This document shows, one piece after another, positions 1 to 36,041 of a stretch of DNA of 36,041 bases. The notes under the pieces are model-generated. The model worked only from the letters and a program-made list of their open reading frames with translations. It was not told the origin of the DNA and did not search any database. The DNA comes from an uncultured Opitutia bacterium. GTDB taxonomy: Bacteria > Verrucomicrobiota > Verrucomicrobiia > Opitutales > Puniceicoccaceae. The stretch is from contig CAJXLM010000029.1 of assembly GCA_913056175.1 (NCBI GenBank), positions 1 to 36,041 of the forward strand, given 5' to 3'. Within the stretch, counting starts at the first letter, position 1, and each line of letters starts with the position of its first letter. The position numbers and the translations under genes are program-made.

Positions 1-498
1 CAGCGCTTCTCCCGCTGGTTCAACCGCCGCCACCGCCGCAAGGGTCCCCTCTGGGCGGACCGTTTCCAGAGCGTGCTCATCGAGCCGAAGGAGAACGCGG
101 TGGGCTGGTACCGGGCCTCCGTGCAGACGGCCCCGGTCCGGGCGGGGGAGGCGGCCGATCCCGACGACTACCGCTGGTCGACGTCCCGGCCGGGGGGCTG
201 GGGCGGGATCCGGCGCTACTCCGTGCGGCGGAAGCTGCGCGCTTGGTCGGACCGGGCGGCGGAGGAGGCAGTGAGCTGGCTGCTCAACCCGAAGGGCCGC
301 CTCGTCGAGGTCCGGGGCGGCCGGGCTCCGCCCCGGGTGATCGAGGAGGCGATGGCCCGACGGGTGATCGCCGGCTCCGAGGCCTATGTGCGCCGTCACC
401 GCGCCCGCTGGGCCGGCGCACCGCGGGCGGTCCCCGTCGAGGAGGTCGACATTCCCCTCTGGGGTGCCCAGCCCTGGCGGCGGACGATGCTCAAGTAA
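1..498 (+). CDS. REP-associated tyrosine transposase (RAYT, Y1_Tnp family), 5'-truncated by the window edge
   Basis: The reading frame is open from base 1, so the N-terminal HUH part lies outside the window. The visible 165 residues begin QRFSRWFNRRHRRKGPLWAD and continue RFQSVLIE. This is the family's usual stretch (arginine-rich helix, then a G-x-LW-x-x-RF-x-S motif). It is followed by a PVRAG...DPDDYRW block and, further on, a GSEAYVRR stretch typical of RAYT C-termini. These enzymes cut single-stranded DNA at REP hairpins and are normally single-copy chromosomal genes. The visible part has an oddity. In relatives the catalytic tyrosine sits five residues before the PVRAG proline (Y-x-x-x-N-P). 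Here that position is serine (ASVQTAPVRAG), although a nearby WY pair could substitute. The gene ends about 20 bp before a hairpin-rich repeat array, the expected partner. The family call is confident; catalytic competence is doubtful. Confidence 0.8.
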   Translation, partial: QRFSRWFNRRHRRKGPLWADRFQSVLIEPKENAVGWYRASVQTAPVRAGEAADPDDYRWSTSRPGGWGGIRRYSVRRKLRAWSDRAAEEAVSWLLNPKGRLVEVRGGRAPPRVIEEAMARRVIAGSEAYVRRHRARWAGAPRAVPVEEVDIPLWGAQPWRRTMLK

Positions 499-723
499 CG
501 ACCTCGAGGTCGCGGGGGTCGCGGGGCTTCCGCTGGTTCCGGGGGTTCGGGGTGTCTTGGGGGATCCGGGGCGTTGCGGATTCGCGGGCAGGGGAATGCC
601 TGCGGCGCGGCATGGGAGTGGGCGGCGCTCATGGCAGGAGAGCGGGATGCGGTGCGGCCCGCGGCATGGGATGAATTCGGTTTTTTGGGGGAATTCAACC
701 AGGCTGCGCCTTGCGGCGTTTCT

Positions 724-742
724 CTGCCGGGCCTTCCGGCAG
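724..742. repeat. REP-like hairpin in repeat unit 1
   Basis: CTGCCGG-GCCTT-CCGGCAG is a perfect 7-bp inverted repeat with a 5-nt loop. It occupies the same place in its unit as the hairpin at 1743-1761. The corresponding sites near 1255 and 1540 are degenerate. Confidence 0.6.
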
Positions 743-1742
743 ATCTCGGCCGCGGTTTCCAGCGCTTGCCTGCTTTGCCTCCCGGCAATCGATGCCGCGC
801 CTTCGGCGCTTCCCTGCGCTGCGGCTCGGGGTGATGGCGCGGGGTGGTGGGGGTTCGGGGTGTATTTGTGAGTTTGGGGAGTTTCTGGCTCGCGTGCATG
901 GGAACGCCTGCGGCGTGGCATCGGAGCGGGCGAGGGCCCATGGCAGGGGATGGATTCGGAATTTTTCGGTGTTTTGAATCCTACTGCGCCTTCCGGCGCC
1001 CTTCTGCTGGGCCTGCGGCCTCTCTCTGCGGCCCTCCCATGCTCTGTGCCTTCGGAACATCCGGACCGCACCTTTCCGTACTCTCTTGCGCTTCACTCGG
1101 GGTGGTTGCGCGAGGCGGCAGGAGATTCCGGGATGTCTTTGGGGAATCGAGGCGTTGCGGACTCGCGGGCAGGGGAGCGGGCTGCGGCCCGCGGCATGGG
1201 ATGGGTTCGGGTTTTTCCGGGGAACTCAATCAAGCTGCGCCTTGCGGCCTTTCTCTGACAGGCCTCCCGGCAGATTCCTACCGCGCTTTCCAGCGCTTCC
1301 CGGCTGTGCCTCATGGCACATCCATGCCGCGGCATTCGGCGCTTTTTTGTGCGTCGACTCGGATCGACAGCGCGGGATGGCGGGGGTTCGGGGTGCCTTT
1401 GGGGAATCCGGTGCGTTGCGGGCTCGCGGGCAGGGAAGCGCCTGCGGCGCATCATGGGAGCGGGCGGAGCCCGCGGCAGGGGATGAGTTCGGGATTTTTC
1501 GTGGAATTGATCCCATGCTACGCCTTCTGCCGCTTCCCTGCAGTATTCCCGGCAGATCCCGGCCGCGCCTTCGGCGCACTGCTGCGCTTTGGCTTGAGGA
1601 GGTGGCGCTGGAGAGCGAGGATTTTCGGCTGTCTTTGGGAGGTCGGGGCGTCGACGGCTCGGGGCAGGGGAACGCCCGCGGCATGGGGTGGGTTCGGGTT
1701 TTTCCCGGGGAATTCAACCAGGCTGCGCCTTGTGTCGTTTCT

Positions 1743-1761
1743 CTGCCGGGCCTCCCGGCAG
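1743..1761. repeat. REP-like hairpin in repeat unit 5
   Basis: CTGCCGGG-CCT-CCCGGCAG is a perfect 8-bp inverted repeat with a 3-nt loop. It is the best preserved copy of the hairpin shared by the array units. Confidence 0.6.
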
Positions 1762-2111
1762 ATCCCGGCCGCGCTTTCCAGCGCTTCCCGGCTGTACCTC
1801 ACGGCACATCCATACTCTGCTTTCCGGCGCTTCGCTGCCGTACCCTCGGCACTTCCCTGCCGCCTTTCGGGGCTTCCCCGCGCTTCGGCTTGGGTCGATG
1901 GCGAAGGGGGGGTTCGTTCGAGTACGGGGCGCTACGGGCTGGCGGGCAGGGGAGGGCCTGCGGTGCGGCTGGGGAGTGGCCGCTCCAGCGGCACGAAGGT
2001 TCAGGGTTTGCGTCGTTCGGGATTCTGGAGGGTCCGATTCGTCGGGGACCCGGGTCCATCCGGTGGTTGGTCAACCGATTGTGTTCGGAAGCAGATCGAG
2101 GGCCTCGAGCT

Positions 2112-2238: not shown

Positions 2239-2841
2239 TCAGAAGGAGAAGTTAAAGATCGGGAAGACGTAGAGAGGGTCGGCCTCCACGTTGAAATTGA
2301 GGAGCCCGATCTGGAGCCCGTAGAGCTGGTCGGTGAAGTTGATCAGGCCCAGCTGGACCCCGTTGACGCTACCTGCCTTGTTGAAGAGACCCGTTTGGAG
2401 TCCGGCCACTTCGCTGTCGGCGAGGGAGACGGCGCCGTACTGCCAGCCGACCAGGTCATCCCCCTGGAGGTTGATGAAGCCGCCTTTCACCCCGGTGAAC
2501 TCCCCATCCGTCTGGGTGTAGAGGCCCGTCTGCCAACCCGTCATGTCGCCCTCGACGATGCTGCCGAGGAAATTGAACTGGACCCCTTGGACGTCGCCGG
2601 TCCACTGACCGACCCCGAGGAGGCCGAGATCGAGACCGCGGAGGTTGTTGTTCTTCGCGTAAAAGATGTTGAAACGAACCCCCTCAACACTGTCGAACTC
2701 GCTGCCGACCTGAGCCGGATAGAAAATCGAGAAATCGGTAGAGCGGGTGAAACCCAACTCCTCCTGCGCCTCGACTTGGGCGGGAAGAAAAGCGGCGGCG
2801 GCGACGGTGCCAGCGGCGAGCAACAGGTGTTTCAGTTTCAT
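2239..2841 (-). CDS. Secreted, probably outer-membrane protein with about nine short G-x-Q-x-G repeats (LA_2272-type surface repeat)
   Basis: The 200-residue product starts MKLKHLLLAAGTVAAAAF, a clear Sec signal peptide with likely cleavage after VEA (residue 25). From about residue 54 to the end, a 14-17-residue motif G-[VLW]-[QRDK]-x-[GN]-[LFA] repeats about nine times (for example GVQFNFLG, GWQTGLYT, GLQTGLFN, GVQLGLIN, GLQIGLLN). This matches the repeat style of LA_2272-family surface proteins known from spirochaetes and other Gram-negative bacteria. The protein ends FNFSF, and a terminal phenylalanine is typical of beta-barrel proteins inserted by BamA. I chose the ATG at 2841 because it gives the intact signal peptide. 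The gene follows argD on the same strand with a 61-bp gap but has no obvious link to arginine synthesis. The biochemical role is unknown. Confidence 0.7.
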   Translation of the reverse strand: MKLKHLLLAAGTVAAAAFLPAQVEAQEELGFTRSTDFSIFYPAQVGSEFDSVEGVRFNIFYAKNNNLRGLDLGLLGVGQWTGDVQGVQFNFLGSIVEGDMTGWQTGLYTQTDGEFTGVKGGFINLQGDDLVGWQYGAVSLADSEVAGLQTGLFNKAGSVNGVQLGLINFTDQLYGLQIGLLNFNVEADPLYVFPIFNFSF

Positions 2842-35973: not shown

Positions 35974-36041
35974 ACGCCCCAACGCCCCAACGCCCCAACG
36001 CCCCAACGCCCCAACGCCCCAACGCCCCAACGCCCCAACGC
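35974..36041. repeat. Perfect 8-bp tandem repeat (ACGCCCCA)n running off the window
   Basis: At least 8.5 uninterrupted copies of ACGCCCCA. On the minus strand this is (TGGGGCGT)n: regularly spaced G4 runs with 4-nt CGTT loops, a strong G-quadruplex pattern. The repeat would encode a GRWGVGAL peptide repeat on the minus strand, but no start or family supports translation. The 67 bp between the flavoprotein stop and the repeat contain a short AT-richer stretch (TTTTAGGGTTAAATGTTT). Confidence 0.9.

What the first reader, a model, noticed from the sequence alone, without database searches (positions are those of the whole stretch)
1..2000. RAYT transposase followed by a 1.5-kb hairpin-rich array
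A Y1-type REP-associated transposase is followed within about 20 bp by at least five imperfect tandem units of 210-285 bp, each with several GC hairpins. Known REP elements are shorter (tens of bp) and often paired. Units this long, with a pyrimidine-rich and a G-rich half, may be a new class of RAYT-mobilised repeat in this phylum.
Basis: partly seen in the sequence, partly recalled or inferred. Interest (0 to 1): 0.65.

Follow-up and report, generated by a model that had tools for sequence, protein, structure and literature searches.

The report
Dead-transposase gene with hairpin-repeat tail
This bacterial genome carries about 26 scattered copies of a transposase-derived gene that has lost the residues such enzymes cut DNA with, each followed by a private array of long hairpin-rich repeats, which raises the question of how a gene without its cutting machinery spread and why every copy is still kept intact.

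Summary
The window starts (contig edge) inside a RAYT-like gene; 42 nt after its stop lie five full units and one partial unit (541-2009), each with several GC hairpins. The same gene-plus-array recurs about 26 times in this 2.6-Mb Opitutales genome, at unrelated sites. About 85 copies of the unit core exist; all lie in RAYT-linked arrays except one orphan and one IS-broken array. The array was not found in 102 other genomes of the order.

This RAYT lineage has lost both HUH histidines (HxH to GIQ) and the nucleophilic tyrosine. Full-length relatives elsewhere in the order keep all three and have no array. The loss is a single event (support 100/99) that precedes the amplification. The gene copies are not recent (pS 0.17) but strongly constrained (pN/pS 0.01-0.11). 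The array diverges almost neutrally, with no hairpin covariation beyond shuffles.

Best reading: a REPtron-like element whose RAYT became a non-catalytic, probably hairpin-binding protein. Gene and array dispersed together, by a route other than canonical Y1 chemistry in cis. That route is not shown.

The parts
1..498 (+). C-terminal 165 aa of RAYT-A, a degenerate Y1 (REP-associated) transposase homologue; the 5' part is missing because the contig ends in this multicopy gene
   Evidence: a Ser stands where the Tyr of Y---NP should be (ASVQTAPVRAG)
499..540 (+). G-rich lead-in between the stop codon and the first unit, homologous between copies but diverged
541..845 (+). unit 1 (core 656-749)
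849..1115 (+). unit 2 (core 935-1028)
1122..1378 (+). unit 3 (core 1186-1280)
1382..1612 (+). unit 4 (core 1468-1562)
1618..1909 (+). unit 5 (core 1673-1768)
1920..2009 (+). partial unit 6, G-rich half only: distal end of the array

Best explanation
The window opens in one of about 26 copies of a dispersed 2-2.5-kb element: a conserved promoter-like block, then the RAYT-A gene, then an array of 1 to about 6 composite hairpin units. RAYT-A descends from a catalytically competent Y1/RAYT transposase but has lost the HUH pair and the tyrosine. It most likely now works as a sequence- or structure-specific binding protein for REP-like hairpins (in DNA, or in the transcript that runs into the array) and not as a nuclease. 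The array is a cluster of REP-like hairpins: 3 in one orientation, a T-rich spacer, about 6 in the opposite orientation, repeated head to tail. It grows by local tandem duplication and travels with the gene. Shown: copy number, linkage, unrelated insertion sites, loss of catalytic residues before amplification, constraint on the protein, near-neutral drift of the array. Inferred: that the protein binds the hairpins, and that dispersal was driven in trans or by host recombination rather than by RAYT-A's own chemistry.
For: Copies: 26 contig edges carry the RAYT-A start. On the other side, 19 edges carry its end followed by the array, and 7 more begin in an array or in an IS beside one. Linkage: about 85 full unit cores, all in these arrays except an orphan at C36 and an IS-broken one at C9. 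Unrelated sites: flanks beyond the element are not similar between copies, apart from a few short stretches in 6 of 1378 pairs, and share no clear neighbours with the RAYT loci sampled in same-family genomes. Catalytic loss: relatives with both motifs readable show HxH plus Tyr (100 rows, with a few broken or misaligned exceptions); the G000 lineage has G-I-Q and A/S/L. GIQ was read in 5 RAYT-A copies. The only PDB match, TnpA_REP 4er8, aligns its HMH to this position. Published Y115F in E. coli TnpA_REP is the catalytic mutant and gives no product (PMC8266576). Order of events: the HUH-less clade is one group (100/99) and RAYT-A is nested in it. Constraint: pS 0.166, pN 0.0023 over 19 C-terminal copies; pN/pS 0.11 over 25 N-terminal copies; singleton codons 14 synonymous to 2 nonsynonymous. 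Array drift: heterozygosity about 0.25 along the unit; nearest neighbour in the same array for 18 of 85 units, against 2.7 by chance.
Against: Binding of hairpins by RAYT-A is not tested. No selection on stem pairing was detected: 82.4% of cells paired against 82.7% in shuffles, and 1 pair changed on both sides against 2.1. So the hairpins may be mere relics. One outer pair of a G-half hairpin does covary (24 G-C, 11 A-T, 9 mixed). No full-length RAYT-A lies in any contig, and the tyrosine position was read in one RAYT-A copy only (the window's). No close relative is available to show an empty site, so transposition is inferred from the unrelated flanks.
Confidence: 0.5

Rival explanations
1. 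Dead allele spread by gene conversion. RAYT genes with intact catalysis were already dispersed, as in G001-G003, and a catalytically dead allele later overwrote them. No spread without catalysis is then needed.
For: Multicopy intact RAYTs are the rule in the sister genus (6-40 matches per genome). Third-position differences are lowest in the middle of the gene (about 0-0.07) and rise to about 0.17 at its ends, as conversion would give, although contig truncation biases this.
Against: Three separate paralogs (C19, C24, C39; 51-73% identical) carry the same loss, so it is old. RAYT loci of G000 and of G001-G003 share no clear neighbours. Every RAYT-A carries the array, which intact relatives lack, so the array would have had to be copied to every site as well.
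Confidence: 0.17
2. Arrays came first. The hairpin arrays are older intergenic repeats and RAYT-A inserted next to them, so they are its landing sites.
For: An orphan array of three near-identical units at C36:621-1477; related short hairpin clusters in about a dozen intergenic places without RAYT.
Against: Only two of about 28 arrays lack RAYT-A. The junction stop codon / lead-in / unit start is homologous in all copies read. First units differ by 0.23 on average, not far above the synonymous distance of 0.17, so gene and array look about equally old.
Confidence: 0.12
3. Classical REPtron: RAYT-A is an active transposase that mobilises these repeats.
For: RAYT ancestry, hairpins with a conserved tag, inverted halves as in REPIN/BIME, and linkage of gene and repeat.
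Against: No HUH and no Tyr. No GTAG guide: 35 GTAG in the arrays against 22.5 in shuffles, far below the rest of the window. Composite units do not disperse without the gene.
Confidence: 0.06
4. Relocated active site: RAYT-A still acts, with a new nucleophile (the Y of [W/Y/F]YRA, three residues before the lost Tyr) and new metal ligands.
For: Of the HUH-less proteins of this genome, all but C39 (which has Phe) have Tyr there, followed by an Arg invariant in the HUH-less set. The family spread after losing the old site and is under strong constraint.
Against: C39 has Phe there. No candidate metal-binding pair was identified and no structure was modelled.
Confidence: 0.1
5. The array is an inert passenger, a decaying 3' tandem repeat without function; only the protein matters, for a role unrelated to the array.
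For: Near-uniform heterozygosity of 0.25, no excess covariation, modest folding z-scores of -1.35 to -2.4.
Against: The array is retained behind nearly all copies over a synonymous distance of 0.17, although one copy is down to a fragment (C38). Conservation is weakly clustered around unit positions 60-130 (p = 0.012).
Confidence: 0.25

Closest known systems
RAYT / TnpA_REP with its REP elements (REPtron), class 2 of the TnpA-Y1 superfamily
   Same: Homologous protein: best and only PDB match is TnpA_REP 4er8 (weak, E 0.35), and the NCBIfam model REP_Tyr_transpos matches below cut-off. Repeats are GC hairpins with a conserved tag, in inverted halves. In Marinomonas, REPs are also concentrated near tnpA_REP (PMC8266576).
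   Different: No HUH and no Tyr; no GTAG tag enrichment; about 26 near-identical copies where class 2 is low-copy (PMC6006769) and RAYTs are described as single-copy genes that do not copy themselves (PMC8049555); repeat units of about 275 nt in tandem.
BIME-2 / REPIN composites
   Same: REP-like hairpins in opposite orientation around a spacer; tandem repetition of the composite.
   Different: Several hairpins per half (about 3 and about 6) instead of one; found only behind RAYT-A (and in one orphan), not through the intergenic space.
IS200/IS605-type insertion sequences
   Same: Gene flanked by non-coding hairpin sequence, dispersed at unrelated sites, many copies.
   Different: No catalytic residues; the right part varies in unit number and has no single fixed end; copies are old and constrained (pS 0.17) rather than recent; neighbouring copies face either way, so no strand bias is evident.
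Multicopy intact RAYT family of Opitutales (G001-G003, Coraliomargarita and others)
   Same: Direct relatives of RAYT-A; multicopy; intact reading frames; upstream motif shared between some copies.
   Different: Keep HxH and Tyr; paralogs 61-76% identical on average rather than 98-100%; no downstream array.

Membership tests
RAYT / TnpA_REP (active transposase) | Homology to the Y1 transposase core | tested here: met
   below the curated cut-offs, but TnpA_REP / Y1_Tnp is the consistent best match; relatives in the same tree pass Pfam Y1_Tnp at 1e-11 and below
RAYT / TnpA_REP (active transposase) | HUH metal-binding motif | tested here: not met
   G-I-Q in 5 RAYT-A copies and in C19, C24, C39; other non-HxH sequence in C1, C9, C40, C55; HxH in essentially all relatives outside the genome
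RAYT / TnpA_REP (active transposase) | Nucleophilic Tyr of the Y---NP motif | tested here: not met
   A, S or L at that column; for RAYT-A itself read in the window copy only
RAYT / TnpA_REP (active transposase) | Single or low copy number per genome | tested here: not met
   26 left and 26 right junctions
REP element | Short palindrome with a conserved tag at its foot | tested here: met
   Hairpins separated by GGCA[T/G]GGGA, 146 against 0.7 in shuffles
REP element | GTAG or CGTC tag | tested here: not met
   GTAG 35 against 22.5 in shuffles and 115 expected from the rest of the window; the conserved tag is a different one; CGTC was not counted
REP element | High-copy dispersal over intergenic space independent of the RAYT gene | tested here: inconclusive
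   Composite units: no. Related short hairpin clusters: about a dozen intergenic places
REPIN / BIME | Two REPs in inverted orientation around a spacer | tested here: met
   G-half tag and its reverse complement in the pyrimidine half; several REPs per half rather than one
IS200/IS605 insertion sequence | Fixed ends flanking the gene | tested here: inconclusive
   Left block homologous to about -85; right ends cluster at the unit end (about 21 of 28 at profile position 205-274) but unit number varies
IS200/IS605 insertion sequence | Cleavage and strand transfer activity | not testable with these tools
   needs protein

The most novel reading that the evidence does not exclude
A Y1-transposase lineage kept spreading as a gene-plus-array element after losing its entire known active site, either with a relocated tyrosine and new chemistry or by a host- or trans-driven route that recognises the hairpin array; all about 26 copies stay under protein-level selection, so the proteins do something in the cell that each copy is needed for.
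Probability: 0.2. Interest if true: 0.85.

Novelty: new variant of a known kind. Interest (0 to 1): 0.62.

Why it matters
RAYTs are the textbook domesticated bacterial transposases: single-copy, catalytically intact, tied to dispersed short REPs. Here the same ancestry gives the reverse pattern: many copies, no catalytic residues, repeats that stay with the gene, and strong constraint on every copy. It makes two open questions testable: what RAYT proteins do for their hosts apart from cutting REPs, and whether Y1-derived elements can spread without their own chemistry. The intact, array-less relatives in the same order provide a natural before-and-after comparison.

Tried and rejected
Rfam: no match at gathering level; two sub-threshold hits only.

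Protein-coding array: unit spacing (308, 273, 261, 235) is not a constant multiple of three; the long ORFs over it are high-GC chance frames.

Selection on hairpins: RNAalifold on whole units found no shared hairpins; a named-structure count showed no covariation beyond shuffles.

Segmental duplication as the mode of spread: flanks unrelated.

Orthology of RAYT sites with the sister genus: no clear shared neighbours.

Replication-strand bias: neighbouring copies on single contigs (C24, C46, C2, C19) face both ways.

Array behind other RAYTs of the genome: absent. Array behind RAYTs of relatives: absent.

RAYT-A in viral contigs or plasmids: no relative in viral contigs; one distant partial plasmid hit.

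Terminator and promoter scans of the array: not clearly above shuffles.

Convergent-neighbour test: 15 of 25 next genes face the array, but gene calls were rough, so no claim is made.

Full report
WHAT IS THERE. The window is contig C29 of a 2.61-Mb, 84-contig genome. Its first 498 bases are the C-terminal 165 codons of a RAYT-like protein. After a 42-nt G-rich lead-in come five full units and one partial unit, ending near 2009. Hairpins are about 2.7 times as frequent as in dinucleotide shuffles (20 against 7.4). The array lies between this gene and a convergent gene (2239-2841, minus strand).

THE UNIT. An alignment of 50 units gives a consensus of about 275 nt. The G-rich half has up to three hairpins (ACGCC-TGC-GGCGT, GTGGGC-GGA-GCCCAC, GCGGGC-TGCG-GCCCGC) separated by GGCA[T/G]GGGA. 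A T-rich spacer follows. The pyrimidine-rich half has about six hairpins separated by sequence close to the reverse complement of that tag. The tag occurs 146 times in the arrays, against 0.7 expected. So the unit is a composite of REP-like hairpins in two opposed clusters, not one long REP. A single unit can also fold as one long imperfect hairpin, but folding energies are only modestly better than shuffles (z -1.35 to -2.4). Array hairpins show no compensatory changes beyond chance, except one outer pair. Heterozygosity is close to uniform at 0.25, with a weak dip at positions 60-130.

COPIES IN THE GENOME. The gene is multicopy, which is why the assembly breaks in it. Its start is seen at 26 contig edges. 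Its end followed by an array is seen at 19. Seven more edges begin in an array, or in an IS beside one. A covariance model of the 95-nt unit core finds about 85 full copies. All lie in these arrays, except three in an orphan array at C36 and one in an IS-broken array at C9. Flanks beyond the element are unrelated between copies. A promoter-like block (GGAATATAATGACAGGCTTT...CTTGACTT) precedes nearly every copy. The arrays add up to 25.6 kb, about 1% of the genome.

THE PROTEIN. In the window lineage the HxH motif reads G-I-Q and the Tyr of Y---NP reads A, S or L. Among aligned relatives from the order, 100 rows read HxH plus Tyr, with a few broken or misaligned exceptions. The only solved structure matched, E. 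coli TnpA_REP, aligns its HMH to the changed site. In E. coli TnpA_REP, Y115F is used as the catalytic mutant and gives no product (PMC8266576). On a tree, all HUH-less proteins form one clade (100/99), and RAYT-A is nested in it beside the paralog C19. The loss therefore came before the amplification. A caveat: no contig holds a full RAYT-A. GIQ was read in five copies; the missing Tyr was read in the window copy and in the paralogs.

AGE AND SELECTION. Between copies pS is 0.17 and pN 0.002 in the C-terminal part, and pN/pS is 0.11 in the N-terminal part. Singletons are 14 synonymous to 2 nonsynonymous. These are old copies, each still constrained. First array units differ by 0.23, somewhat above the synonymous level, which fits common descent of gene and array with little constraint on array sequence. 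A minority of units are local duplicates (18 of 85 nearest neighbours in the same array, against 2.7 by chance).

RELATIVES. Sister-genus genomes carry 6-40 matches of intact, array-less RAYTs, 61-76% alike on average in the two genomes compared. In the order, 51 of 273 genomes have the protein family. None of 102 others has the array. Named relatives of the protein include Puniceicoccaceae MAGs and Coraliomargarita; a Coraliomargarita protein is nearly identical to one from a genome of the window's order, so the order is taken as Opitutales.

RELATED REPEATS. The tag-hairpin-tag pattern also occurs in intergenic clusters on C11, C8 and C79, and a search with one such cluster finds about a dozen places without RAYT. 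The composite array therefore belongs to a wider hairpin-repeat population of this genome.

HOW IT MOST LIKELY WORKS. Shown: a gene-plus-array element dispersed to unrelated sites; catalytic motifs lost first; protein constrained; array drifting. Inferred: RAYT-A is now a hairpin-binding protein, and the element was copied by something other than its own canonical chemistry. I give this about 0.5. The main rivals, some of which overlap with it in part, are an inert array (0.25), gene conversion of a dead allele over older sites (0.17), arrays first (0.12) and a relocated active site (0.1).

KNOWN OR NEW. It works somewhat like a REPtron, and its protein is a RAYT by descent. It is not an active RAYT by the defining residues. 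Published accounts describe class 2 genes as low-copy (PMC6006769) and RAYTs as single-copy genes that do not copy themselves (PMC8049555). I rate it a new variant of a known kind.

Noticed in passing
G000 C13, C22, C34, C25, C3 (N-terminal ends) and C14, C53, C62 (C-terminal ends); L200-L207: A second multicopy RAYT family, at about five contig edges and about 45% identical to the RAYT-A relative C19 in the N-terminal part, without this array.
   Followed up: partly
L095 (C8:37936) and L099 (C7:33685): Two RAYTs of another group with intact HxH and Tyr: the only candidates found in this genome for driving mobility in trans.
   Followed up: partly
L257, L258, L259, L260 and other places: Intergenic clusters of short GC hairpins with the tag GGCAGGGGA, one directly after a stop codon, not next to any RAYT; some are followed by a CCTCCTTGGGAAGGAGG palindrome.
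   Followed up: partly
upstream of RAYT genes in G000 (L068-L093, L032, L033): Most RAYT copies and paralogs in this genome are preceded by a strongly C-rich, G-poor stretch (GC skew down to -0.47) that is not conserved in sequence.
   Followed up: no
G056, G174, G138, G024: Other Opitutales show more than 100 first-look candidates of this RAYT family per genome; only a few proteins were read, all with HxH.
   Followed up: no
window 35974-36041: A perfect 8-bp tandem repeat (ACGCCCCA, 8.5 copies) at the other end of the contig.
   Followed up: no
L191 (C27 end), L189 (C9 start): An insertion-sequence transposase fragment sits at or inside arrays, so arrays are also IS targets.
   Followed up: no
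window 2239-2841 (-): Outer-surface-type protein of the VC2662 / LA_2272 repeat family next to the array.
   Followed up: partly
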